A stretch of DNA of 40,155 nt from an uncultured Burkholderiales bacterium. GTDB taxonomy: Bacteria; Pseudomonadota; Gammaproteobacteria; Burkholderiales; Burkholderiaceae_C. Numbering within the stretch: the first letter of the stretch is position 1; the number at the start of each line of letters is the position of its first letter. The stretch is taken from the NCBI GenBank assembly GCA_903820745.1, contig CAIJIT010000031.1, forward strand, positions 1 through 40,155. Direction: 5' to 3'. The position numbers and the translations under genes are program-made. Shown here piece by piece: positions 3,824 through 28,025 of the stretch. The notes under the pieces are model-generated. The model saw only the letters and a program-made list of their open reading frames with translations. It made no database searches and was not told the origin of the DNA.

Positions 3824-4129
3824 ATGCGTAAGGCCCTGCTCTCGCTGCTCCTGCCCCTGTTCATGCTGCTGTCGCAGCAGGGCGCGCTGTGGCATGAGGT
3901 CGGCCATTTCGGCAATGGTCAGGCTCCGGCCAGCCAGAAGAAAGAGACGCTCGACAAGGTCTGCGAATCCTGCATCGCCTTCGCCCATCTGGCCGCCGCG
4001 GCGAAGCCTGAATTGTTTGCTTCGGCCAGCACGGCCCTCACTTATGCAGCGCCTGCGACTGGCCAACTTGCCTCGGTTGCCTCGGCAGCACCGGCACAGC
4101 GCAGCCGCGGTCCGCCTGCTTTCCTCTGA
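3824..4129 (+). CDS. Small secreted His/Cys protein (DUF2946-like) before a TonB receptor
   Basis: A 101-residue protein with a clear signal peptide (MRKALLSLLLPLFMLLSQQG). The mature part carries a WHEVGH segment (HxxxH) and a CESC pair (CxxC), then an Ala-rich tail ending SRGPPAFL. This layout resembles the small DUF2946-type periplasmic proteins that sit beside copper-related or TonB genes in proteobacteria, which often end in a similar RGPP segment. Metal binding is inferred from the His and Cys pairs only. The gene begins 27 bp after the IOR stop and ends 81 bp before the TonB receptor start, so it most likely works with the receptor. Confidence 0.7.
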   Translation: MRKALLSLLLPLFMLLSQQGALWHEVGHFGNGQAPASQKKETLDKVCESCIAFAHLAAAAKPELFASASTALTYAAPATGQLASVASAAPAQRSRGPPAFL

Positions 4130-4210
4130 TCGTTTTGCCAGTTGGTTTGTCTTGGGTCCGGTGACGGAATCAAGGCCGATTTCATTGTCAGGTTCAGAGG
4201 AATTGAAAAA

Positions 4211-6316
4211 ATGTTTACCCCAAGCAAGCGCCTGCTGGCGCTGGCTGTTCTTGTCGGCATGCCATTGGCAGGGCTGGCTGACGAAGTCCAGTCTCTGCAA
4301 AAAGTCGAAGTCACGAGCAGCCGAAAAAAACTCGACGAAGCGCGCAATGGCCTTTCACCCGATACCGGCAGCTCGGTCTACCGGCTCGATAGCCAGGACA
4401 TCAAGAATTTGCCACTCGGCGACAGTACGCCGCTGAACCAGGTGATCCTGCAGACACCCGGCGTGGTGCAGGGCTCGTATGGCCAGTTGCATGTCCGCGG
4501 CGACCATGGCAATGTGCAGTACCGGATCAACGGCGTGATCATTCCTGAATCGATTGGTGGCTTCGGCCAGGCATTGGAAACCCGTTTCGCCGACCATCTC
4601 AGCATCTTGACCGGCGCGCTGCCGGCGCAATATGGCTTGCACAACGCGGCCGTGGTCGACATCCAGAGCAAGGGCGAAATGGCCGCCGATGACGCCAGCA
4701 TCAGCTTCACCGGCGGCAGCCGCGGTCATGCGGAAACCTCGGTCGAGGCCAGTGGCACCGAGGGCTCATTCAGCTATTACCTGACCGGCTCGACGATGCG
4801 CGATGGCAGCGGCATCGAGAATCCGACACCGTCCAACAATGCCCTGCACGACCAGACCAGGCAGACCAAAAGCTTCGGCTATCTGTCCTATCTGCTGGAC
4901 GCAGACAGCCGCATCAGCGTGCTGTTCGGCAGCAGCGACAACCGCTTCCAGATTCCCAACCTGCCGGGCGAGCAGCCCCAGTTCAACCTCGCGTCGACGC
5001 CGCCGCTTGATTCGGCCAAGCTCGACGCGAACCAGCGCGAGCGCAACCGCTTCGCTGCGCTGAGCTACCAGGGCGTGATCGGTGCTTCACTGGACTATCA
5101 ACTGTCGGTTTTCCAGCGGGTCACCGATGTGCATTACCAGCCCGACCCGGTCGGCGACCTGCAGTTCAACGGCGTCGCTGCCGACATCCTGCGACGCAAT
5201 CAGGCCAGCGGCCTGCAGGCCGACTTCAGCTACCGGCTGGGTGCTCACCATACCTTGCGCAGCGGGCTGTTCGCCCAAGCGGAAACAGCCAGCGCAGCCA
5301 ACAGCGCCACCGTTTTTGCGGCTGATACCGATGGCATGCAGACCAGCAATCGGCCGATACAGATCCAGGATGGCTCCAGCATCAAGGGCCGGCTCTGGGG
5401 TGCCTACTTGCAGGACGAATGGCGGATCAGCCCGCCATTGACACTCAACTACGGCCTGCGCTATGACCAGGTCAGGACGGTGGTCGATGAACACCAACTG
5501 AGCCCTCGCGTCGGCATCGTTTACGACATCAACAAGAACCTGCGCCTGCATGCCGGCTATGCCAGCTATTTCACGCCGCCATCGACCGAGAAGATCGACA
5601 GCACTTCGGTGCAGAAGTTCCTCGGCACCACCAATGCCCTGCCTTCGAACGCCAATATGGCCATCCGATCGGAACGCTCTGACTACCTTGATGCCGGCCT
5701 GGCCTATCAACTCACGCCGCAAATCACGCTGGGGCTGGATGGCTATCACCGCGCGATCAAGCATTTGCAGGATGAAGGCCAATTCGGCAAGGCGCTGATC
5801 TACTCGGCCTTCAACTTCAAGCAGGGCCGGATCTATGGGCTCGACCTGTCGGCGAGCTACCGCGACAAGCAGATTTCAAGCTACCTGAACCTCGGCCTGA
5901 GCCATGCGATGGCTCAAGGCGTGGAGAGCGGACAGTTCAATTTCTCGCAGGATGAGCTCGACTACATCAACTCGCATTGGGTCCACCTCGACCATGAGCA
6001 GCGGCTCAGCGCCTCGGCCGGTCTGTCCTACCGCTTCGAGACCCAGTTGAATTTGAGCGCCGATGCGCTGTTCGGCAGTGGTATGCGCAAGGGCTTTGCC
6101 AACACCGAACGCCTGCCGAGCTATGCCACGGTGAACCTGGCAGTCGCCAAGCCGGTCGACTTCGGGTCCGGCTTGGGCAAGCTAGACCTCCGGCTCGCCC
6201 TGAACAACCTGTTCGACCGCATCTATCAGCTCCGCGATGGCTCGGGCATCGGCGTCGGCGCGCCGCAATACGGCATGCGCCGGACTATTTACCTGGGCGC
6301 CAGCAAGTCTTTCTAA
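4211..6316 (+). CDS. TonB-dependent outer-membrane receptor (first of two)
   Basis: A 701-residue receptor that would import a substrate across the outer membrane using TonB/ExbBD energy. It has a signal peptide (MFTPSKRLLALAVLVGMPLAGLA), a possible TonB box near QKVEVTSS, and a plug domain with NQVILQTPGVVQGSYGQLHV and YRINGVIIPE. A 22-strand type barrel follows, with NYGLRYDQVRTV, SPRVGIVYDINKNLRLHAGY and LRLALNNLFDRIYQLRDG, and the protein ends in an aromatic residue (ASKSF) as needed for barrel assembly. The start at 4211 is supported by AGAGGA 8-13 bp upstream and by the signal peptide. The earlier in-frame ATG at 4142 would bury the signal peptide. The substrate is unknown. The small His/Cys protein next to it hints at a metal or metal complex. 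Confidence 0.92.
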   Translation: MFTPSKRLLALAVLVGMPLAGLADEVQSLQKVEVTSSRKKLDEARNGLSPDTGSSVYRLDSQDIKNLPLGDSTPLNQVILQTPGVVQGSYGQLHVRGDHGNVQYRINGVIIPESIGGFGQALETRFADHLSILTGALPAQYGLHNAAVVDIQSKGEMAADDASISFTGGSRGHAETSVEASGTEGSFSYYLTGSTMRDGSGIENPTPSNNALHDQTRQTKSFGYLSYLLDADSRISVLFGSSDNRFQIPNLPGEQPQFNLASTPPLDSAKLDANQRERNRFAALSYQGVIGASLDYQLSVFQRVTDVHYQPDPVGDLQFNGVAADILRRNQASGLQADFSYRLGAHHTLRSGLFAQAETASAANSATVFAADTDGMQTSNRPIQIQDGSSIKGRLWGAYLQDEWRISPPLTLNYGLRYDQVRTVVDEHQLSPRVGIVYDINKNLRLHAGYASYFTPPSTEKIDSTSVQKFLGTTNALPSNANMAIRSERSDYLDAGLAYQLTPQITLGLDGYHRAIKHLQDEGQFGKALIYSAFNFKQGRIYGLDLSASYRDKQISSYLNLGLSHAMAQGVESGQFNFSQDELDYINSHWVHLDHEQRLSASAGLSYRFETQLNLSADALFGSGMRKGFANTERLPSYATVNLAVAKPVDFGSGLGKLDLRLALNNLFDRIYQLRDGSGIGVGAPQYGMRRTIYLGASKSF

Positions 6317-6327
6317 GGCTTTCGCTT

Positions 6328-7581
6328 TCAGTCCGTGTTGGCTTGCAAGCAGACCCGGGTCTGAGCCAGGAAATCATCAGCCAGTTGTTCAGCTTCAGCT
6401 CGACTGGCTGCGCAGGTCATGACATAGCCGATCCGGTCCGCATTCTGCAGCGGGCGCCGGACCCTGTCGCCGGGCAATTTCAATAGCTCGACACAACGCA
6501 CGCCAGGGGCCGGCTGCAAGGGCAAATCGACCCGCTCGAGGATGCCCTCCCGATCAGCCACGATCCAGCGCGTCACGGCCACAGCGGGCGTTTGGGTGGT
6601 CAACGGGGCGAGCGTCTCGCCGAGGTGCAAGGAAATCAGATCGGCATGAATGGATCGATCCAGCGCATAGCCGATCAGACGCGCAATCTTGGCCCCCACC
6701 AGGCGGGAGTTGATCTCGATCAGCTGGGGTCCGCTATCGGTCAGCATCAACTCGGTATGGGCAGCACCACAATCAAAGCCGACCGCATCGAGTGCGGCAA
6801 AGACATAGCGTTCAATCGCCTCGACCGTCGGGTTGTTGGGGGTAAAGCAACCGCCAAAAATCGCAAATGAAGGGGGTTCAAAAAACAGTTTTTCGTTGAT
6901 GCCCAGGAGCTGATGCCGGCCATCGACCGTCAGGGTGTCGCAGCCGATGAACCTTCCTGACAGGTAGCGCTCGACCAGCCATCGATCGTTGGCAAGCACG
7001 CCCAAACCGTAGTCGGCTCGGCATGGCAATAAATCATCCAGCGGGCTCAGCATCGGGTCGAGATCTTCGGGATGACGCAACAGGATGATGTTCTGTGAAC
7101 CATAGCCGTCGGCGGGCTTGATCAGCACGGGCAAACCCATGGTCTTGACTGCCTGTTGGAGTTCCTGGTTCGACTGGGCGAGCATGAATTCTGGCTGCGC
7201 CAGACCTTGCTCGGCGAGACGACTGCGCACATCGAATTTGTCACGCAACAAGGCCGCGCTGGCCGGGTTCAAATGCCGCACACCCAGACGTTCGGCAAGT
7301 CGCGCCGCCTCGGTCATGCGAATATCTATCAGACACAAGACGGCGTCAATCGGCCTGTGCGCATGCAGGGCCAGAATGCGTTGTTCGACCGCTGCATAGT
7401 CGAATGGCGAGATTTCAATCAGTTCACGCGCTGCCGCCAATTTGACGTTGACCAAGGTCTGCTGCTGGTACAGCGCCAGATGCGAGGTCAGGAAAGTGAA
7501 CTCGTCACTTCGCTCAATCGCAGCCTGGACAATGTCGACATCGTTGCCGCCGGGTAAATCGATGATCAGCAAATGGGCCAT
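6328..7581 (-). CDS. ATP-grasp enzyme, L-amino-acid-ligase-like
   Basis: A 417-residue ATP-grasp protein, last gene of the minus-strand operon. Seen: a Rossmann-like N-terminal domain (HLLIIDLPGGNDVDIVQAAI), the ATP-grasp lysine strand (GLPVLIKPADGYGSQNIILL), WLVERYLSG, and the metal-binding end HTELMLTDSGPQLIEINSRL with the E-x-N pair. The HTEL...EINxRL pattern resembles the BacD-type L-amino-acid ligases and carnosine synthase relatives, which join a carboxylate to an amine through an acyl phosphate. I infer amide-bond formation on a small molecule or peptide. ATG at 7581 is preferred over TTG at 7584. It lies 21 bp after the FGE-like gene stop, so it is co-transcribed. Its stop is 11 bp from the convergent TonB receptor stop. 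Confidence 0.88.
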   Translation of the reverse strand: MAHLLIIDLPGGNDVDIVQAAIERSDEFTFLTSHLALYQQQTLVNVKLAAARELIEISPFDYAAVEQRILALHAHRPIDAVLCLIDIRMTEAARLAERLGVRHLNPASAALLRDKFDVRSRLAEQGLAQPEFMLAQSNQELQQAVKTMGLPVLIKPADGYGSQNIILLRHPEDLDPMLSPLDDLLPCRADYGLGVLANDRWLVERYLSGRFIGCDTLTVDGRHQLLGINEKLFFEPPSFAIFGGCFTPNNPTVEAIERYVFAALDAVGFDCGAAHTELMLTDSGPQLIEINSRLVGAKIARLIGYALDRSIHADLISLHLGETLAPLTTQTPAVAVTRWIVADREGILERVDLPLQPAPGVRCVELLKLPGDRVRRPLQNADRIGYVMTCAASRAEAEQLADDFLAQTRVCLQANTD

Positions 7582-7602
7582 CAAGGCTTTCAGGGCAAAA
7601 GT

Positions 7603-8622
7603 TCAGATGCTTTCGGCCAGCCGAAAGCCCATCGCATAGGTGGCTGAGCGAGGATTGTGTCCATGGCGGCGACGCGTGCGCGCCAGGTCACGGAACCGGG
7701 CGAAGCTGCCTCCCCGGGCGACACGGTAGTTGCCGTGAATCTGCGCCAGATGATCCGCGATCCACTCGCCGCCCGGGTAGGCGGCGTAGTTTTCAGACGT
7801 ATATTCTTCGACATTGCCGGCCAGGTCCGAGACGCCGTAGGTCGACTCGCCACCGACAAATGCCCCGACTGGCGAACTGGTCAAGAGGCCGGTCTCGGCG
7901 GTGTTGGCCAAGTTCGCATCAAAACGCTCGCCCCAGGGAAATTCACTGCCTTGCGGCCCTGCCGCCGCCCATTCCCATTCCGCTTCGGTGGGCAAACGAA
8001 ACCCGCGTCCGCTGCGCTGCGCCAGCCATTGAGCATAGGCGTCGGCCGCTGCGGCGCTGACCGTATAGACAGGATGATTGGCCAGCGCCTGCGGGAACTG
8101 CCTGAATTGCCAACTGCCGGGCAGCTCTGCATAGCCTGTATCCAGCAGGAACTCACGGTATTCGGCATGGGTCACCGGATAGCGGGCCAGACGGAAGGCT
8201 TTCAAGCTCAGCCGATGGCGTGGGCACTCCTTGGCGAACCAGCTGCGGTCGAGCCCCAGCCCGGCGTAGCGCAGCATCACCTGGTCGAGTTGCGCAGAAT
8301 CGAGACCGATCTGGACTTCACCGCCCGGCACCGCCAGCATCTCGGGATGCTCGCAACGGATGCGCGGGTCACCCAGCAGCGCCAGCAATCCACCGCTGGC
8401 CAGACGCAAGGCCAGCGAAGACAGCGGTGACGCCAATGTCTCGAGCAGTTGATCGATCGAACGTCCACGCAGCTCCGCATAGGCCGTCGGTAGCGCTGCA
8501 TCAAGGCGCCCGGCGACATAGCGCAACGGCAGCCCCAGGCGTTCGCGGTCGCTCAGTTCCGCACAGAGAATGGCTTTGAACTGCGGCCAATGCCATGCAG
8601 GATCGGGACCAACCCCAGACAT
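7603..8622 (-). CDS. Formylglycine-generating enzyme (FGE/EgtB-fold) family protein
   Basis: A 339-residue protein. Residues 1 to about 90 are not recognised. From about residue 95 it is an FGE-sulfatase domain: MLAVPGGEVQIG, FRLARYPVTHAEYREFL, GRGFRLPTEAEWEWAA, SDLAGNVEEYTSENYAAYPG and a C-terminal segment at 303-339 starting RGGSFARFRDLARTRRRHG and ending GFRLAES. True aerobic FGEs bind copper through two cysteines in that last segment. Both are missing here, and the segment looks more like the EgtB/SenA branch. No EgtB-like N-terminal DinB domain with its iron-binding histidines is seen. The protein may use another metal site or be non-catalytic. The start overlaps the preceding flavoprotein stop (TGATG). 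Confidence 0.88.
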   Translation of the reverse strand: MSGVGPDPAWHWPQFKAILCAELSDRERLGLPLRYVAGRLDAALPTAYAELRGRSIDQLLETLASPLSSLALRLASGGLLALLGDPRIRCEHPEMLAVPGGEVQIGLDSAQLDQVMLRYAGLGLDRSWFAKECPRHRLSLKAFRLARYPVTHAEYREFLLDTGYAELPGSWQFRQFPQALANHPVYTVSAAAADAYAQWLAQRSGRGFRLPTEAEWEWAAAGPQGSEFPWGERFDANLANTAETGLLTSSPVGAFVGGESTYGVSDLAGNVEEYTSENYAAYPGGEWIADHLAQIHGNYRVARGGSFARFRDLARTRRRHGHNPRSATYAMGFRLAESI

Positions 8623-9236
8623 CAGGATTGCCTGGCTGCAGATTGGGCGAAATTGCCGGCCAGCCGCAGCACCCGCCCCAATGCCGAATCGATGCGCTCA
8701 TCGAAGAAGGGTTCGAACAGATAACCCACATCGGTCCAGGACTCGGCGGCATAGGGCAGACAGAGCCGATCGCCAATCACAAGACAACCGATATAAGCGA
8801 ACAAGGCCCGGGCTGAAGCCATTGCCACAGCGCCACCGCTGCTGCCGGTCGTAGCGCTGCACAGCAGCACCGGTCGGTCGAGAAACGGGTTGTCAAAGCG
8901 CGGGTCGATATGCGCCAGGCGCGATGTCCAATCGATCAGATTTTTCAAATAGGGTGGCAACTGGCCGTTGTACTCGGGGCTGGCGACGATCATGCCATGG
9001 CAGGCGCTGAAGCGACGATGCAGCCCGGCCAGCCGCAAGATCATCTGTGGATCTGCCTCGAGATCCTGGTCAAACAAGGGCAGCTCGACCTGTTCGGGCG
9101 CCAAAAAGTCAACCCGGCAGCGCCCTTGCAATCGCCAGGCCAAGTCCTGCAATAAGCGAGCATTGAACGATTCTCGGCGCATGCTGCCCGGGACCAGCAA
9201 GAGAGTTGGCAGCGGTTCGATCGGGGCAAAGGTCAT
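8622..9236 (-). CDS. NADPH-dependent FMN reductase-like flavoprotein
   Basis: A 204-residue flavodoxin-fold protein. The FMN-phosphate loop is GSMRRESFNARLL at residues 17-29, matching the family GSxRxxSxN pattern. SPEYNG at 86-91 is followed by QLPPYLKNLIDWTSR, the family signature that packs on the flavin and forms the dimer surface. These enzymes pass electrons from NAD(P)H through FMN to quinones, metals or a partner enzyme. Here the partner is likely another protein of the operon. The start ATG at 9236 overlaps the WD40 gene stop (ATGA), and its own stop overlaps the FGE-like start, so translation is coupled on both sides. Confidence 0.9.
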   Translation of the reverse strand: MTFAPIEPLPTLLLVPGSMRRESFNARLLQDLAWRLQGRCRVDFLAPEQVELPLFDQDLEADPQMILRLAGLHRRFSACHGMIVASPEYNGQLPPYLKNLIDWTSRLAHIDPRFDNPFLDRPVLLCSATTGSSGGAVAMASARALFAYIGCLVIGDRLCLPYAAESWTDVGYLFEPFFDERIDSALGRVLRLAGNFAQSAARQS

Positions 9237-10948
9237 GCGGGAACTGGGTAGATTTGTCCATCGTAGGACGAGGCCAGAAAATGTCCGTCATCGTTGTCCC
9301 AGACGATCGATGAGATGCCCGCATCGGTGGGGCGGGACATGCCGAGCCAGCGCCGACCGGCCAGATCGAAGGCGGCCAAGGTGCCGCCATAGCTGCCGGT
9401 CAGCAAAAGGGTTCGCGCGGCATTGACGGCGATGCATTTGACTGAATTGGGATGCGGACTCGGATACAACTCGGCGACGCCGTCAGTCCAGACGCGCAGC
9501 GTCCGATCGCGGCCAACAGTGGCAAAGCCCCCCGTACCGATGGCGCAGCAAGCATTGGCAATGCGCTGATGGGCACCAGGAATTCGCCTGATCAGCGCCC
9601 AGTCATGGCAATCGTGCCAGCTGATCTCGGTCGACGCGCAGACCGAACAGAGCTGGCTATCGCTCCAGCTGAGGCCCTTGACTGCGTTGTCGTACACAGC
9701 GAGCTCAGTCACAAGATTGAGGTCACCATTGACAGCCAAGGCGAAGATCAAAATTTCGCCGGTGTAGCTGCCGATCGCCAGGTGCGGCAGGCCTTGGCGT
9801 TCGAAGCTGACGCCGCAGTTAAGCGGCGAAGGGTGTTGGTAAAGCAGTTTGCCGGTTTGCGCATCGAACAGCTGCCCCAGTTGCCCACCGGTGACTATCC
9901 TTTTGCCTACGGCAACCAGAAAGTTGCACAGGCTGCCCATCTCGGCGACAGTCTGGCCGTCCAATTGGACAATGCCAGCGTCACCGACGGACCAGGTTCG
10001 ACCGTCGATCTGGCACAAGGCGTTGAGCGCAGGACCAGCGGCCACCCCTTGCAGATCCCAGGTCGAGCTCAGCGGATCGAAAACCGCGTAGGTGCCGCCG
10101 AAGGTTCCAACTGCAATCTTGCCATCGTCGAGGATTGCCGCTGATCTTGCCCAGGCAATTGCCGGCAATGTCGAACGGCTGATTTCTTTGAGCCGGGGCG
10201 CTTTGCCGGCAACAGCAGAAATTCGCCAGACGGCCAAGGTCCTGTCGTAACTCAATGAAAGCAACAGTCCGCGCTCGGCGTCGAGCACGATCTTCTTGAT
10301 TCCGGCCTGATGCGCATCGATGAAATCGGCTTGACCCGCACACAAAATCGCGATCCGGCCGAGGTCGTCGCCAGCGTAGGCCACGCCATCAGGCGCGATC
10401 TCAACGGTGTCAGTGCGCACCGACAGGTCGGCAATGCGCAAGGCCTTGCCCTGAATTGCATCCCACCAGCGCAAAGTGCCGTCGACACTGGAAGAGACCA
10501 GTTCACGGCTGTCAGGCGACCAGGCCAGCGACAGCACATTGCCCTGGTGACCTTGCAGGGTATGCAGACAACGACCACCAAGGTCGAAGATCCGCACGCA
10601 GCGATCCAACGCACAGCTTGCGATCAGGCGGCCATCCGGAGAGAACAGCGCCATATCGACATCGTCATCATGGCCAGCAAGAACCGCCTGCAAGCGCATC
10701 TCAGGCACCGCCCAGATGCGCGCCGAGGCATCGCTGCCGGCACTCACCAACCAGCGCCCGTCGGGGCTGAAAGCGCAATGATTGACCAGATGATCATGGC
10801 TGCCGCCAGCCAGCGCCTGGCGGGTTCTTGCATCCCACAGGATCACCCGGTTGTCATAGCCAGCGCTGGCGACCAAGCCCTGCTGCGCGGCCAGCCCGGC
10901 GATCGGCCCGACATGCCGCAAACGACGGCCCGGGCTTAGATTCACCAA
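9233..10948 (-). CDS. WD40-repeat beta-propeller protein
   Basis: A protein of about 571 residues made almost wholly of WD40-like blades, with no signal peptide. Clear blades include VASAGYDNRVILWDARTR, SAGSDASARIWAVPEM, ASCALDRCVRIFDLGG and SSSVDGTLRWWDAIQG. More degenerate blades run to the C-terminus, such as ATVGRDRTLRVWTDG and LTGSYGGTLAAFDLAG. The number suggests two propellers. Such proteins act as binding platforms. Beside FGE-like, flavin and ATP-grasp proteins it could hold a substrate peptide or gather the enzymes. No ATG is available: TTG at 10948 or GTG at 10945 starts the frame 3-6 bp after the stop of the upstream small gene, which suggests translational coupling. Confidence 0.9.
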   Translation of the reverse strand: MVNLSPGRRLRHVGPIAGLAAQQGLVASAGYDNRVILWDARTRQALAGGSHDHLVNHCAFSPDGRWLVSAGSDASARIWAVPEMRLQAVLAGHDDDVDMALFSPDGRLIASCALDRCVRIFDLGGRCLHTLQGHQGNVLSLAWSPDSRELVSSSVDGTLRWWDAIQGKALRIADLSVRTDTVEIAPDGVAYAGDDLGRIAILCAGQADFIDAHQAGIKKIVLDAERGLLLSLSYDRTLAVWRISAVAGKAPRLKEISRSTLPAIAWARSAAILDDGKIAVGTFGGTYAVFDPLSSTWDLQGVAAGPALNALCQIDGRTWSVGDAGIVQLDGQTVAEMGSLCNFLVAVGKRIVTGGQLGQLFDAQTGKLLYQHPSPLNCGVSFERQGLPHLAIGSYTGEILIFALAVNGDLNLVTELAVYDNAVKGLSWSDSQLCSVCASTEISWHDCHDWALIRRIPGAHQRIANACCAIGTGGFATVGRDRTLRVWTDGVAELYPSPHPNSVKCIAVNAARTLLLTGSYGGTLAAFDLAGRRWLGMSRPTDAGISSIVWDNDDGHFLASSYDGQIYPVPA

Positions 10949-10951
10949 GCG

Positions 10952-11326
10952 TCAGGCCGCAAGATTGAACATCGAACCCGCGCCGGCTGGCGTCGGAGGC
11001 TGCGTGGTGGCGGTGGCCACAACTGGTGTTGTTGGCTGATGGTGGTGGTGGTGCTGGCCACCGCGTGCTGCCTGGAGCGACTGCGCCGCCTGCTGAGCTG
11101 CGCCCAGATCACCACTTTGCAGGGCTTTGCCGATCTGCGCCAAGGGGCCGCTGCCCTGGACAGCATTGGTGCCATTGGACATGCTCGCATAAGCCGATTG
11201 CGCCCCGGCCAAGTCGCCCGCAGTCAAGGCCTTCATCATGCTTTGCACGCCTTGCTGACGCTGCTGCCAAGCCGCGGCACCCTGGCTGGCACTGGTCGAA
11301 CCCGAACCACTGATTTGCATTCCCAT
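10952..11326 (-). CDS. Small Ala/Gln-rich repeat protein with a His5 run; first gene of the WD40/FGE/ATP-grasp operon
   Basis: A 124-residue protein of unknown function. The start at 11326 (MGMQISGSGSTSASQG) is chosen over upstream starts because GGAG lies 6 bp before it. Two copies of a helical unit are visible: ALTAGDLAGAQSAYASM and, about 35 residues on, ALQSGDLGAAQQAAQSL. Similar AL-x2-G-D/N-L-x2-AQ units occur in many small proteobacterial proteins of unknown role. A His5 run follows (GGQHHHHHQPT), then a Pro/Thr/Ala-rich tail ending GAGSMFNLAA. There is no signal peptide. As first gene of an operon of modifying-type enzymes it could be their substrate or a metal-binding helper. Both ideas are inference. 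Confidence 0.75.
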   Translation of the reverse strand: MGMQISGSGSTSASQGAAAWQQRQQGVQSMMKALTAGDLAGAQSAYASMSNGTNAVQGSGPLAQIGKALQSGDLGAAQQAAQSLQAARGGQHHHHHQPTTPVVATATTQPPTPAGAGSMFNLAA

Positions 11327-12104: not shown

Positions 12105-13706
12105 ATGACAAATTTTGTAGACGCCGTCGAACTGAAATTCTGGTTGCACGATGGCCAGGAAATTGCCCTGTTTGATGTCCGGGAGCATGGGCAATATGGG
12201 GAGTCTCATCTGTTTTTTGGCGTTCCCCTGCCCTATAGCCGACTCGAGCTGGAGGTGCGGCGACTGGCACCGCGACTGGGCGTACGGCTGGTGGTGTACG
12301 ACGATGACGGCCAGGGCGTGGCAGTGGCCGCCGCGGGCCGGTTGGCCGAGTTGGCTTACACCGATGTCCATGTGCTGCGCGGCGGCACCCACAGCTGGCA
12401 GGCCGCCGGTTTTGCGCTGTTTGCCGGGGTCAATGTCCCGCACAAAGCCTTTGGCGAACTGGCCGAGCAGGCGTACCACACGCCCCGCGTCACCGCGACC
12501 GAACTGGCGCGACTGCTGGCTGACAAAGAGGACGTCGTGGTGCTGGATGGTCGGCCGTTTTCGGAGTTTCAGAAAATGAATATCCCGACCGCCACCAGCT
12601 GCCCGAACGGTGAACTCGGCCTGCGGATCCGCGACCTGGTGCCGAGCGAGAAAACCCATATCGTGATCAATTGCGCTGGCCGAACGCGCAGCATCATCGG
12701 CGCGCAAACGCTGATCAACCTCGGCGTGACCAACCCCATCTCGGCACTCGAAAACGGCACTCAGGGCTGGTACCTGGCTGATCTGGGGCTCGAGCATGGT
12801 GGCAAACGCCGCTATCCAGATGTTGCCCAAGCCCGGTCGCCAGCCGCACAAGCAGCGCAAGTCGAAATGCGCGCTGCGGCTGAGGCCTTGGCGGCGAGTT
12901 TCAATGTCCCTACGGTCAGCGCGCAGACGGTGCAAGCCTGGTCGCAAGATCCGCAACGCACGCTGTTCTTGTGCGATGTACGCAGCCCGGAGGAATTCGC
13001 TCTTGGCAGCCTGCCCGGCGCCCAACATATGCCGGGCGGCCAGCTGATGCAGGCCAACGACCACTATGTCGGCGTGCGTCACGCCAGGCTGGTGCTGTTT
13101 GATTCTGACGGCATCCGTGCCTGCACGGTGGCCAGTTGGCTGAACCAGATGGGCCACGATGCCAGCGTGCTCAGCCAAGGGCTGGCCAGCCAACTCGCTT
13201 TGCCCACAGTGGCTGCAGCCGCCATGCCGGCGCTGCCGAAAATCAGCGCCCTGAACATGGCCGCCGGGCTGGCCAAGGGCGAGCTGATCGCCATCGACCT
13301 GCGCCCGAGCATGCAGTTTCGCCAGACCCATATTGCCGGCAGCCGCTGGTCGATCCGCCCGCAACTCGCAGCAATGCTGGCAGGCACCCATCTCCCGGTC
13401 GTGCTGATTGCCGATGAGCAAGGCCTGGCCGCTTATGCAGCGCTTGACCTCCAGCCGCTGGGTCTGTCGGTGAGTCTGCTCGAAGGGGGTCTGAGCGCCT
13501 GGCGGTTGGCCGGTTTGCCGCTGCAGAGCGCAGGCGATTCACCAGCCGATGGCGATTGCATCGACTACCTGTTCTTCGTGCATGACCGGCATGACGGCAA
13601 CAAAGAAGCGGCACGCCAATACCTGGCCTGGGAGATCCAGTTGATCAGTCAGCTCGATGCGCTTGAGCTGAACTCGTTTCGACTCCCCAGGGCCAAGGCG
13701 GCCTGA
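12105..13706 (+). CDS. Four-domain rhodanese (sulfurtransferase-like) protein
   Basis: A 533-residue cytosolic protein with four successive rhodanese-like domains. Domain 1 has IALFDVREHGQYGESHL, domain 2 VVVLDGRPFSEFQKMN, domain 3 LFLCDVRSPEEFALGS and domain 4 LIAIDLRPSMQFRQTH. Only domain 2 has the active-site loop with a cysteine (INCAGRTRS, Cys190). The matching loops are YDDDGQG in domain 1, FDSDGIR in domain 3 and IADEQGL in domain 4, all without Cys. The protein probably carries a persulfide on one domain, with the rest acting as scaffold or substrate sites. The sulfur acceptor is unknown. The last 45 residues are a charged helical tail. Confidence 0.88.
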   Translation: MTNFVDAVELKFWLHDGQEIALFDVREHGQYGESHLFFGVPLPYSRLELEVRRLAPRLGVRLVVYDDDGQGVAVAAAGRLAELAYTDVHVLRGGTHSWQAAGFALFAGVNVPHKAFGELAEQAYHTPRVTATELARLLADKEDVVVLDGRPFSEFQKMNIPTATSCPNGELGLRIRDLVPSEKTHIVINCAGRTRSIIGAQTLINLGVTNPISALENGTQGWYLADLGLEHGGKRRYPDVAQARSPAAQAAQVEMRAAAEALAASFNVPTVSAQTVQAWSQDPQRTLFLCDVRSPEEFALGSLPGAQHMPGGQLMQANDHYVGVRHARLVLFDSDGIRACTVASWLNQMGHDASVLSQGLASQLALPTVAAAAMPALPKISALNMAAGLAKGELIAIDLRPSMQFRQTHIAGSRWSIRPQLAAMLAGTHLPVVLIADEQGLAAYAALDLQPLGLSVSLLEGGLSAWRLAGLPLQSAGDSPADGDCIDYLFFVHDRHDGNKEAARQYLAWEIQLISQLDALELNSFRLPRAKAA

Positions 13707-13715
13707 ACGTCGCCC

Positions 13716-14825
13716 TCAAGCCTCTCGGGACTGGCCGAGCGCGGGGTAATCGGTATACCCCTCCTCGCTGCCGCCGTACCAGCCCACCGCGCGCGGGTCG
13801 TTGAATGGCCCGCCTTGACGGATGCGCGCCGGCAGGTCCGGATTGGCCAGGAAAGGCCGGCCGAAAGCGACCATGTCGAAAGTTCCGGCAGCAACATAGT
13901 TCTGCGCGGCTTCGGGCGTGATTGCGCCATTGCCGATCAAGGTGCCGCTGAAATGCGGCTTGGTCGCGGCCAGCAACTGCGGCATGTCCGGACTGCCGGC
14001 CCAGGCATTGGTGTCGGCCAGATGCAGATAGGCCAGGCCATAGCCCTCGAGCAATTGGGCCACGGCCGTGGTCGTCGCTGCCGGGTCGGTATCGCGGCTG
14101 TTGTTGTAGCCGGCGAATGGCGAAATACGCACGCCAACGCGGTTGGCGCCGACTTTGGCGACCACCGCCTCGACCACTTCGCGCAGAAAGCGCAAGCGGT
14201 TTTCCATGCTGCCGCCATACAGATCGCTGCGCTGGTTGGTGCCCGGCGAGAGGAACTGGTGCGGCAGATAGCCGTTGGCGGCATGGATCTCGACCCCGTC
14301 GAGCCCGGCCCTGATAGCGTTCGCCGCGCCCTGTGCATAGTCGGCAATCGTTTCCTGGATTTCAGCCAAGGTCATCGCACGCGCTGGCGTTGCCGCGAGG
14401 CGGGCATAACGGCCGTTGGCCATCTGGCCGTAGACCTGCAGCGCGTCGAGGTCGTCGTTGACTTCGGAAGGCCCCAGCGGCGGCTCGCCATTGAGGATCG
14501 CGTCGGCGCCGACCCGGCCGCAATGCCAGAGCTGCATGAAGATATGGCCACCCTCGGCATGGACGGCGTCAGCCACCTGGCGCCAGCCCTCGACCTGCGC
14601 CTCGCTGTAGATGCCCGGCGCCTTCTCGAAAGCGCAGGACTTGGCGGTGATGTTGGTGCCCTCGGCAATGAGCAGCCCGGCAGAAGCGCGCTGACGGTAA
14701 TAAGTCGCGCTGATCGGCAGCGGCACGTCACCGGCACCGGCGCGGCAGCGGGTCAAGGGCGCCATCACGATGCGGTTGGGTAAATTCAGGCCCTTCAGGT
14801 CAAGCGGGTCAAATAGCGCAGTCAT
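13716..14825 (-). CDS. Old Yellow Enzyme family alkene reductase (OYE1)
   Basis: A 369-residue FMN-dependent NADPH:alkene reductase of the NemA/OYE family, which reduces activated C=C bonds and nitro compounds. It starts LFDPLDLKGLNLPNRIVMAP and has the active-site His/Asn pair in VEIHAANGYLPHQFL, then RSDLYGGSMENRLRFL and the FMN phosphate region VAFGRPFLANPDLP. Its length is normal for the family. The start has AGGAGA upstream. It is divergent from the MOSC gene with 114 bp between them. A second member (OYE2, 26797-27876) lies 12 kb away. The two differ clearly in sequence, so this is not a recent duplicate. Confidence 0.93.
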   Translation of the reverse strand: MTALFDPLDLKGLNLPNRIVMAPLTRCRAGAGDVPLPISATYYRQRASAGLLIAEGTNITAKSCAFEKAPGIYSEAQVEGWRQVADAVHAEGGHIFMQLWHCGRVGADAILNGEPPLGPSEVNDDLDALQVYGQMANGRYARLAATPARAMTLAEIQETIADYAQGAANAIRAGLDGVEIHAANGYLPHQFLSPGTNQRSDLYGGSMENRLRFLREVVEAVVAKVGANRVGVRISPFAGYNNSRDTDPAATTTAVAQLLEGYGLAYLHLADTNAWAGSPDMPQLLAATKPHFSGTLIGNGAITPEAAQNYVAAGTFDMVAFGRPFLANPDLPARIRQGGPFNDPRAVGWYGGSEEGYTDYPALGQSREA

Positions 14826-26786: not shown

Positions 26787-26805
26787 ACCGGCAATATCAG
26801 TCGGC
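26740..26805. repeat. Right 66-bp direct repeat (DR-R) at the OYE2 3' end
   Basis: Partner of the repeat at 15456-15521 (58/66 identical, no gaps; 34 identical bp at 26750-26783). Its right side runs into the intact OYE2 gene, which ends here. Its left side is unlike MOSC. The pair encloses 15522-26739. This is the pattern of an insertion flanked by a duplicated target or by att-like sites. Confidence 0.85.
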
Positions 26806-27876
26806 CAGCGTCGGGTAGTCGAGATAGCCATGCGCGCCACCACCGTAGAAGGTGCTGGCGTCAAGCGTCGGCTGCAGCGGCGCATCCAGGCGCAGGCGCC
26901 GCACCAGATCCGGGTTGGAGATGAAGGGGCGCCCGAAGGCGATCAGATCAGCATGGCCTGTAGCCACGGCCTGCAGGGCCATCTCGCGGTTGTAGCCGTT
27001 GTTGACCATCCAGTTGCCGGCAAAAGCTTGGCGCATCGCGTCATAGTCGAACGGTGCAATGTCGCGCGCACCGCGGGTCTGGCCTTCGACGACATGCACA
27101 AAAGCCAGCTTCAGCAAACTCAGTTGCGCGGCCAGATGGGTGTAGAGCGTTTGCGCGTCGCTGTCCTGCGGGGCGTCATTGACCGGCGTGACCGGGCTCA
27201 ACCGGATGCCGGCGCGGCCCGGGCCGATCGCAGCGGCGATCGCGGCCATCACTTCGACCGCGAGGCGCACGCGGTTTTCGACCGAGCCGCCATATTCATC
27301 ATGGCGGTCGTTGATGCTGTCGCGCAGAAATTGCTCGATCAGATAGCCGTTGGCACCATGCACTTCGACGCCGTCGAAGCCGGCCTCCATCGCGCAGCTC
27401 GCAGCATGGGCGAAATCGGCCACCAGCCCGGGCATTTCATCGGTGCGCAATGCACGCGGTGTAGAGGCCTGCACAAAGCCTTCAGCAGCAAAAGTCATGC
27501 CCTTGGCGGCCTTGTTGGTCGATGAGACCGGCGCCTGGCCATCGACCTGGAACTGTGTATGCGAGATGCGGCCGACATGCCAGAGCTGCACGGCGATCTT
27601 GCCACCCTCGGCATGCACCGCATCGGTGACGCGCTTCCAGGCCTTGATCTGGTCCGGGCGATGGATGCCCGGTGTGTCGAGGTAGCCCTGGCCTTGCTGG
27701 CTGATCTGCGTGCCTTCGCTGATGATCAGGCCGGCGCTGGCACGCTGGCGGTAATACTCGACTGCCATCTCGCCGGGCAGCAAGCCCTTCGAGCGGCTGC
27801 GCGTCAGCGGCGCCATGACGATGCGGTTGGCGAGCTGCAGGTCGCCGATCTGGATGGGGTCGAAAAGGCTGGGCAT
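26797..27876 (-). CDS. Old Yellow Enzyme family alkene reductase (OYE2, NemA-like)
   Basis: A 359-residue FMN-dependent ene-reductase. It begins MPSLFDPIQIGDLQLANRIV, has VAVQLWHVGRISH-like substrate-site residues (IAVQLWHVGRISH), the His/Asn pair in VEVHGANGYLIEQFL, HDEYGGSVENRVRL, and the FMN phosphate site IAFGRPFISNPDLVRRLR. It is the closer of the two OYEs to E. coli NemA in overall layout. ATG at 27876 is chosen; the longer frame to 27942 adds 22 residues that do not belong to the family. Its last codons lie in the right direct repeat, so it was probably the convergent neighbour of MOSC before the insertion. Confidence 0.93.
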   Translation of the reverse strand: MPSLFDPIQIGDLQLANRIVMAPLTRSRSKGLLPGEMAVEYYRQRASAGLIISEGTQISQQGQGYLDTPGIHRPDQIKAWKRVTDAVHAEGGKIAVQLWHVGRISHTQFQVDGQAPVSSTNKAAKGMTFAAEGFVQASTPRALRTDEMPGLVADFAHAASCAMEAGFDGVEVHGANGYLIEQFLRDSINDRHDEYGGSVENRVRLAVEVMAAIAAAIGPGRAGIRLSPVTPVNDAPQDSDAQTLYTHLAAQLSLLKLAFVHVVEGQTRGARDIAPFDYDAMRQAFAGNWMVNNGYNREMALQAVATGHADLIAFGRPFISNPDLVRRLRLDAPLQPTLDASTFYGGGAHGYLDYPTLAD

Positions 27877-28025
27877 GGTGAATTTTTCAGTAAAGCAAAG
27901 CGCGCCAGGATCGGCGAACAATCGCTGATTATCCATATCCAATTGACCAGGCCGCCTTGCCGCAAGCCAAGCAGTTGAGGGTTTGCCCCTCGATCACTGC
28001 CCACCAAGAATGCAAGAATCGTCGC

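What the first reader, a model, noticed from the sequence alone, without database searches (positions are those of the whole stretch)
6328..11326. Five-gene coupled operon: repeat/His-rich small protein, WD40, FMN reductase, FGE-fold, ATP-grasp
Seen: all five genes are on the minus strand with overlaps or gaps of a few bases (3, ATGA, TGATG, 21 bp). Known: FGE/EgtB-fold enzymes, NADPH:FMN reductases and L-amino-acid-ligase-like ATP-grasp enzymes modify peptides or small molecules, and WD40 propellers are binding platforms. Inference: the small first gene supplies a peptide substrate or metal helper, and the set makes a modified peptide or amino-acid metabolite. I cannot match the combination to a named pathway.
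Basis: partly seen in the sequence, partly recalled or inferred. Interest (0 to 1): 0.78.

Follow-up and report, generated by a model that had tools for sequence, protein, structure and literature searches.

The report
Toxoflavin-type ring-making operon, new variant
Two of the five genes belong to the pair that builds the nitrogen-rich ring of toxoflavin-like compounds in other bacteria, here combined with two different finishing enzymes and no toxoflavin-type methylation gene, so the operon probably makes a new relative of that compound family.

Summary
The five minus-strand genes are real and tightly coupled. The WD40 and FGE-fold genes are relatives of the ToxC/PsdE and ToxD/PsdC pair implicated in making the 7-azapteridine core of toxoflavin and pseudoiodinine: the closest solved structure of the FGE-like protein is ToxD (7spq, E 3.6e-100), and the two genes lie within 2.4 kb of each other in 20 of 20 loci. 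One relative (L098) has the same five genes in order plus a GTP cyclohydrolase II, toxoflavin's first step. FMN reductase and ATP-grasp ligase form a second pair: in one genus they lie away from WD40+FGE yet are kept, and 8 of 8 sampled order genomes with the ligase carry the WD40 gene. Toxoflavin's methyltransferase, cyclohydrolase and deaminase are not in the operon. Best reading: an azapteridine core made from a riboflavin precursor, then reduced and joined to an amino acid. Core assignment strong; tailoring inferred. The small protein's family also occurs without the operon, so 'peptide substrate' is weakly supported.

The parts
10952..11326 (-). Small repeat protein (124 aa): MGM start, two [A/S]GDLxxAQ repeats, His run, C-terminal FNLAA; accessory of unknown role
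   Evidence: GGAGA upstream of the start; relatives in 7 of 20 loci by profile; family also outside the operon
9233..10948 (-). WD40 protein, ToxC/PsdE-type: predicted azapteridine-core enzyme (start may be 10945 or 10921)
   Evidence: 47-48% identity to the WD40 genes of toxoflavin-type clusters L013, L014, L111; many residues conserved in at least 19 of 20 sequences; all-beta model, mean pLDDT 91.7
8622..9236 (-). NADPH-dependent FMN reductase-family flavoprotein, predicted reductive tailoring enzyme
   Evidence: PF03358 9.8e-28; in the locus in 11 of 20, and paired with the ATP-grasp gene elsewhere in 3 further genomes
7603..8622 (-). FGE-fold protein, ToxD/PsdC-type: predicted azapteridine-core enzyme
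   Evidence: PF03781; closest solved structure 7spq ToxD, E 3.6e-100 over residues 22-338, next best 4.8e-26 with a 63-residue best stretch
6328..7584 (-). ATP-grasp ligase with LAL_C2 domain, L-amino-acid-ligase-like; likely start ATG at 7581
   Evidence: PF13535 and PF18603; closest solved structures include L-amino acid ligases 3vot, 30vh, 4wd3; 8 of 8 genomes with it in a 398-genome order sample also have the WD40 gene
4142..6316 (+). TonB-dependent receptor, convergent with the operon; possible transporter of the product or unrelated
   Evidence: PF00593 3.6e-38; a 55% identical receptor lies 1.5 kb downstream of FGE in L009; no hit in the other loci

Best explanation
The operon makes a 7-azapteridine (pyrimido[5,4-e][1,2,4]triazine) metabolite. 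The host riboflavin pathway (one GTP cyclohydrolase II and one RibD, side by side on another contig) supplies 5-amino-6-ribitylaminouracil. The WD40 (ToxC/PsdE-type) and FGE-fold (ToxD/PsdC-type) proteins join it to glycine, close the N-N-containing triazine ring and oxidise off the ribityl chain, giving a 1,6-didemethyltoxoflavin-like core. There is no toxoflavin-type methyltransferase; instead the FMN reductase-type flavoprotein reduces the core or an adduct, exposing an N-H nucleophile, and the ATP-grasp enzyme joins an amino acid to it. The small repeat protein is an accessory. Shown here: homology, gene linkage, co-occurrence, no match to the methyltransferase. From the literature: the role of the WD40/FGE pair in core formation. 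Inferred: substrate supply, which of the two proteins does which step, what the FMN reductase and ATP-grasp act on, the final product.
For: FGE best structural match is ToxD, 7spq, E 3.6e-100, nearly full length. Of the 80 FGE loci kept, I examined the first 22: the top 8 all carry the WD40 gene, the next 14 none, though some of these are short contigs. All 11 non-window genomes found by WD40 alone carry the FGE in the same locus. L014 and L111 hold MTase-FGE-GCHII-WD40-RibD, the published toxoflavin set; L013 too, with RibD matched over 152 of 368 residues only. psdC and psdE mutants are rescued by 1,6-didesmethyltoxoflavin. L098 has the window's five genes in order plus GCHII; L011 has a GCHII-like ORF between ATP-grasp and WD40. 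FMN_red+ATP-grasp persist as a separate pair in G304, G364, G392. The TOX-clade cluster L106 also holds FMN_red and ATP-grasps with GCHII and RibD. Own genome: one GCHII, one RibD, no toxA-like MTase.
Against: The window operon has no GCHII or RibD of its own, so the substrate is inferred. L009 and L104 show no FMN reductase in the locus; of the six toxoflavin-type loci only L106 has an ATP-grasp and only L106 and L112 an FMN_red. No product is known to me for any ATP-grasp-type cluster. 1,6-didemethyltoxoflavin has no carboxylate or primary amine for a ligase, so the ATP-grasp may act earlier or on another intermediate. A ToxC sequence of a proven producer was not compared; that ToxC is the WD40 member follows by elimination from the gene set and from psdE. 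The toxA-like search of the own genome had no positive control.
Confidence: 0.7

Rival explanations
1. One reading: FGE/EgtB-type and ATP-grasp enzymes modify the small His-rich peptide (a RiPP-like pathway), with WD40 as docking platform.
For: Small proteins sit directly before WD40 in window, L008, L010, L098; two per locus in L010, L011, L012; short 61-63 aa forms with the same MGM start in L009, L011, L012, L015; conserved last residues.
Against: Small protein found by profile in 7 of 20 loci only; the family, its C-terminal tail and His runs also occur in genomes not among the WD40-bearing ones, next to unrelated genes. FGE is ToxD-type with no Cys after residue 134 and no DinB domain.
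Confidence: 0.08
2. The azapteridine or an amino acid is joined by the ATP-grasp enzyme to the C-terminus of the small protein, which acts as carrier (like amino-group carrier proteins, recalled) or as a protein-bound redox centre.
For: Cluster copies share an M[G/E]M start and a hydrophobic-N/D-x-x-A/V C-terminus with a variable middle.
Against: Similar tails exist in genomes without a WD40 hit; L102, L103, L104 have the ligase but no small protein by profile, and the ligase loci of the g187 genomes none either.
Confidence: 0.1
3. The operon makes toxoflavin itself, borrowing the missing enzymes from elsewhere in the genome.
For: Core pair conserved; GCHII and RibD exist in the genome.
Against: No toxA-like methyltransferase in the own genome at E<=1e-10; no hit in the 40 kb window to the RND-type transporter proteins of L014; WD40 and FGE fall outside the TOX groups (100/99 and 99/96); two extra conserved enzymes unexplained.
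Confidence: 0.05
4. The product is a metal-binding azapteridine taken up by the convergent TonB receptor (a metallophore).
For: TonB receptor directly convergent with the operon, preceded by a DUF2946-like gene; a related receptor beside the L009 cluster.
Against: A relative of this receptor is seen in 2 of the 11 ATP-grasp-type loci; the DUF2946 match is below the Pfam cut-off.
Confidence: 0.1

Closest known systems
Toxoflavin operon toxABCDE (Burkholderia glumae, Pseudomonas protegens Pf-5)
   Same: ToxD-type FGE-fold protein and a WD40 (ToxC-type) protein close together; GTP cyclohydrolase II present in relatives L098 and L011
   Different: No ToxA methyltransferase, ToxB or ToxE in the window operon; adds FMN reductase, ATP-grasp ligase and a small repeat protein; no relative of the L014 RND-type exporter in the window
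Pseudoiodinine cluster psdABCDEFG (Pseudomonas mosselii 923, PMC9911603)
   Same: psdC (sulphatase-modifying factor) and psdE (WD-40) pair, whose mutants are rescued by 1,6-didesmethyltoxoflavin
   Different: No psdA/psdF methyltransferases, psdB, psdD or psdG in the operon; tailoring enzymes differ
L-amino acid ligases (BL00235 3vot, 4wd3, BacD)
   Same: ATP-grasp_4 plus LAL_C2 domains; among the nearest solved structures
   Different: Distant (E 5.8e-22 by profile); in the sampled order found only in genomes with the azapteridine pair; substrate unknown

Membership tests
ToxC/ToxD (PsdE/PsdC) azapteridine core pair | FGE-fold protein homologous over nearly full length to ToxD | tested here: met
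   7spq E 3.6e-100, residues 22-338 of 339
ToxC/ToxD (PsdE/PsdC) azapteridine core pair | Nearby WD40 gene homologous to that of toxoflavin-type clusters | tested here: met
   47-48% identity to L013, L014, L111 genes; ToxC of a proven producer was not itself compared
Toxoflavin / pseudoiodinine biosynthetic cluster | Dedicated GTP cyclohydrolase II and RibD-type deaminase in the cluster | tested here: not met
   No tblastn hit in the window; one of each elsewhere in the genome; L098 has GCHII behind the same five genes
Toxoflavin / pseudoiodinine biosynthetic cluster | SAM methyltransferase (ToxA, PsdA/F) | tested here: not met
   No match at E<=1e-10 in the own genome with the L013 methyltransferase
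Toxoflavin / pseudoiodinine biosynthetic cluster | 1,6-didemethyltoxoflavin as intermediate | not testable with these tools
   Needs chemistry
Canonical formylglycine-generating enzyme | Copper-binding Cys pair in the C-terminal part (position recalled) | tested here: not met
   No Cys after residue 134 in the window protein; no Cys among positions conserved in at least 19 of 20 sequences
EgtB/OvoA/SenA sulfoxide or selenoxide synthases | N-terminal DinB iron domain (recalled) and scores over the family cut-offs | tested here: not met
   Only FGE-sulfatase found by Pfam; SenA 93 bits against cut-off 420, EgtB 90 against 360
L-amino acid ligase (ATP-grasp) | ATP-grasp core plus LAL_C2 domain | tested here: met
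   K155-P156 and DGYGS 158-162 invariant in the seven sequences aligned, window included
L-amino acid ligase (ATP-grasp) | Joins two amino acids | not testable with these tools
   Substrate unknown
RiPP precursor peptide | Gene consistently beside the modifying enzymes | tested here: not met
   By profile in 7 of 20 loci; family also in genomes without a WD40 hit

The most novel reading that the evidence does not exclude
A new, possibly older branch of azapteridine biosynthesis: a four-enzyme module (ToxC-type WD40, ToxD-type FGE, flavoprotein reductase, amino-acid ligase) that makes amino-acid- or peptide-conjugated 7-azapteridines, from which the methylated toxoflavin toxins arose by swapping the ligase/reductase half for a methyltransferase; in some hosts the product may be a redox cofactor or shuttle rather than a secreted toxin, since no relative of the toxoflavin-type RND exporter was found in the ATP-grasp-type loci (other exporters were not searched).
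Probability: 0.35. Interest if true: 0.85.

Novelty: new variant of a known kind. Interest (0 to 1): 0.68.

Why it matters
How the N-N bond of toxoflavin-type rings is made is called unclear in the pseudoiodinine paper and only proposed for ToxC in a 2025 preprint. This operon type shows the WD40+FGE pair working apart from the methyltransferase and deaminase, so it isolates the core step and offers new orthologues for mechanism studies. It also points to a set of azapteridine products, in MAGs labelled Burkholderiales and Oxalobacteraceae among others, findable by WD40+FGE together with FMN_red+ATP-grasp.

Tried and rejected
Considered and rejected: (1) FGE as sulfatase activator or EgtB/OvoA/SenA-type enzyme: scores far below cut-offs, no DinB domain found, no late Cys. 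(2) Small protein as a cluster-specific RiPP precursor: at first suggested by a single-sequence search that rang in 2 of 59 relatives' genomes, the own one and one chance-level hit with stops inside, and by the conserved termini, then weakened by profile hits in other genomes. (3) ATP-grasp without the cluster: genus-mates G008 and G016 carry a relative (about 47% identical in G008), a result against strict co-occurrence; but these copies lack about 55 residues spanning the nucleotide-binding core, and Pfam finds no ATP-grasp core domain in the one scanned, L107. Their 18-19 kb loci show no WD40, FGE or FMN_red; their whole genomes were not searched for WD40. (4) FGE structure model: mean pLDDT 53, not used. 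(5) Foldseek of the WD40 model gave generic propellers, 2ymu first; the sequence search of solved structures likewise, and the 60 shown of 109 include no ToxC. (6) Literature: ten searches in an open-licence library; none turned up a paper joining toxoflavin-type genes with this ATP-grasp cluster. Of the two hits one (PMC12154649) was read in passages and outline, the other seen as a listing only; the one hit was seen as a listing only. Song 2023 (Org Lett) and PMC6559721 are not held; Song 2023 is known here only through a review's passages and reference lists.

Rows dropped or biased: L008-L015 were found by FGE, L098-L106 and L111, L112 by WD40, so 20 of 20 is 8 of 8 plus 11 of 11 plus the window. 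The ATP-grasp gene of L102 is broken into two frames and was counted from its pieces; the piece of L108 used in the ATP-grasp alignment was too short. In the FGE tree the outgroup branches are very long and the root is weakly supported; L106 WD40 is a long branch. Searches are draws from the same order; I did not verify genome by genome that the draws coincide. G156, one of the 8 small-protein genomes without a WD40 hit, was not fetched; in L128 the hit lies in a frame that my gene caller did not list.
Full report
Observation. WD40, FMN_red, FGE-sulfatase and ATP-grasp/LAL_C2 are confirmed by Pfam; the small protein reaches no Pfam cut-off.

What the FGE and WD40 genes are. The closest solved structure of the FGE-like protein is 7spq, deposited as 'Serine/threonine kinase ToxD', E 3.6e-100 over residues 22-338 of 339; the next, CalU17, scores 4.8e-26 with a best stretch of 63 residues. 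I examined the first 22: the top eight (L008-L015, 51-68% identity) all hold the WD40 gene, and the next fourteen (L016-L029, some on short contigs) do not. Two of the eight, from Pseudomonas lundensis and P. weihenstephanensis (L013, L014), hold methyltransferase, FGE, GTP cyclohydrolase II, WD40 and RibD genes (RibD of L013 matches only 152 of 368 residues of that of L014), with transporter genes that I recognise by eye as RND type beside them; L111 has the same set. This is the gene set published for toxoflavin: ToxA methyltransferase, ToxB cyclohydrolase, ToxC 'unknown function', ToxD 'serine/threonine kinase', ToxE deaminase (PMC5851621, passages; the five-gene operon also in PMC6337347 and PMC10708333, passages). 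ToxD being the FGE (7spq), ToxC is the WD40 gene by elimination. In the pseudoiodinine cluster psdC is a sulphatase-modifying factor and psdE a WD-40 protein; the authors propose that one or both form the N-N bond with glycine, and feeding 1,6-didesmethyltoxoflavin rescues both mutants (PMC9911603, passages). A 2025 preprint calls ToxC a new oxidase family proposed for N-N bond formation (PMC12154649, passage and outline). A review gives the path GTP, deaminated pyrimidine, dephosphorylation, ribityl pyrimidotriazinedione, oxidation to 1,6-didemethyltoxoflavin, two N-methylations (PMC10884874, passages).

Spread and linkage. Searching by WD40 (E<=1e-60) found 10 of 399 genomes of the order and 3 of 398 of the phylum, own genome included in both. 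With the eight FGE-found loci this gives 20 loci including the window. By profile or, for the last three, single-sequence search: FGE 20 of 20 (within 2.4 kb of WD40); ATP-grasp 12; FMN_red 11 (two of them, L106 and L112, distant, confirmed by Pfam); small protein 7; GCHII 8; RibD 5; toxA-like methyltransferase 3. They fall into three types: ATP-grasp type (11: window, L008-L012, L015, L098, L102, L103, L104), toxoflavin type (6: L013, L014, L105, L106, L111, L112) and WD40+FGE only (3: L099-L101, one genus). In the genomes of the last three an FMN_red+ATP-grasp pair lies elsewhere (L138-L140; about 2 Mb away in the closed genome G304, on other contigs in the drafts; FMN_red 49-51% and ATP-grasp 44-46% identical to the window). 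In the order sample the ATP-grasp profile (E<=1e-60) rings in 8 of 398 genomes, all 8 among the 10 with the WD40 gene; they belong to five genera. So two two-gene cassettes, WD40+FGE and FMN_red+ATP-grasp, appear to be kept together even when not linked. Against this: outside that sample, genus-mates G008 and G016 hold an ATP-grasp relative without WD40, FGE or FMN_red in the locus, but these copies lack about 55 residues of the nucleotide-binding core.

Bridges to the toxoflavin route. L098 carries small, WD40, FMN_red, FGE and ATP-grasp in the window's order followed by a GTP cyclohydrolase II, and that genome has a second copy on another contig. L011 has a GCHII-like ORF between ATP-grasp and WD40. 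L106, in the toxoflavin group of both trees, has two ATP-grasp genes, an FMN_red, a methyltransferase, a cysteine-synthase-like and a MetX-like gene on one strand with FGE, WD40, GCHII and RibD. The window's genome has one GCHII and one RibD, within 2 kb of each other on another contig, and no toxA-like methyltransferase at E<=1e-10 (no positive control). The substrate must then come from the riboflavin pathway (inference).

Trees. The toxoflavin-type FGE sequences form one group (99/96, in 98% of 200 bootstrap trees), and so do their WD40 sequences (100/99). With distant FGEs as outgroup the toxoflavin group is nested among ATP-grasp types, which would make toxoflavin the derived form, but the root is weak and the outgroup branches long.

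Enzymes. No Cys follows residue 134 in the window FGE and none is among the positions conserved in at least 19 of 20 sequences, so the copper site of true FGEs (recalled) is missing. The WD40 protein keeps dozens of positions conserved in at least 19 of 20 sequences, many of them His, Asp, Asn, Cys and Trp, down to 35% identity, which suits an enzyme better than a passive platform (inference). Its model is all beta, 55 strands, consistent with two seven-bladed propellers, mean pLDDT 91.7. The ATP-grasp is nearest to L-amino acid ligases; K155-P156 and DGYGS 158-162 are invariant in the seven sequences aligned, window included.

Small protein. Relatives in the clusters begin M[G/E]M-x-[I/V] and end hydrophobic-N/D-x-x-A/V; short 61-63 aa forms exist in L009, L011, L012, L015, found by motif and each with a purine-rich stretch upstream. 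But the family also rings in 10 of 300 order genomes, 8 of which are not among the WD40-bearing genomes; in the seven of these neighbourhoods fetched (L127-L133) no gene resembling WD40, FGE, FMN_red or ATP-grasp was called, and similar C-terminal tails and His runs occur there. The profile finds the family in 2 of 14 cluster-bearing or ligase-bearing genomes searched. It is an accessory, not a proven substrate.

Mechanism. Core formation by WD40+FGE from a riboflavin intermediate and glycine is the best-supported step. The next steps, reduction by the FMN_red protein and amino-acid ligation by the ATP-grasp, are inference from family membership and co-occurrence. The final product and its use (antibiotic, redox shuttle, cofactor, metallophore) are open.

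Noticed in passing
3824-4129 and 4142-6316 (+): DUF2946-like ORF (below cut-off) followed by a TonB-dependent receptor convergent with the operon; a 55% identical receptor lies beside the L009 cluster.
   Followed up: partly
L008:10451-11821, L009:3255-4595, L011:1-846, L015:1451-2917: An outer-membrane-like protein with an N-terminal CxACH haem-type motif lies near the cluster in 4 of the 11 ATP-grasp-type loci; the L008 copy hits no Pfam or NCBIfam model.
   Followed up: partly
L107:9120-10436, L108:8995-10203 (genus-mates G008, G016): ATP-grasp relatives that lack about 55 residues of the nucleotide-binding core, next to a P-type ATPase with a heavy-metal domain (L107) and a MerR-like regulator (by eye): degenerate or repurposed copies.
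   Followed up: partly
L106:50-11829: A rich cluster: two ATP-grasp genes, FMN reductase, methyltransferase, cysteine-synthase-like and MetX-like genes with FGE, WD40, GTP cyclohydrolase II and RibD; may make an amino-acid-decorated azapteridine.
   Followed up: partly
L133:8490-10028, L131:577-1101, L127:9342-9764, L129:9161-9940: Members of the SGDLxxAQ repeat family away from the operon, some with His runs, with VNTSA, INTTA, HVTA or STHA ends; one (L133) is followed by a FliD-like gene (recognised by eye). Function unknown.
   Followed up: partly
L104:6168-8378: A PF00141 peroxidase gene (736 aa) lies directly before the WD40 gene; toxoflavin is reported to generate hydrogen peroxide.
   Followed up: no
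12105-13706 (+): A 533 aa protein with four rhodanese-domain stretches, close to the operon.
   Followed up: no
13716-14825 and 26797-27942 (-): Two old-yellow-enzyme-type genes in the window, 40% identical to each other.
   Followed up: no
L102:5944-7184: The ATP-grasp gene is split over two frames in this draft genome; the sister genome's copy (L103) is in one frame.
   Followed up: no
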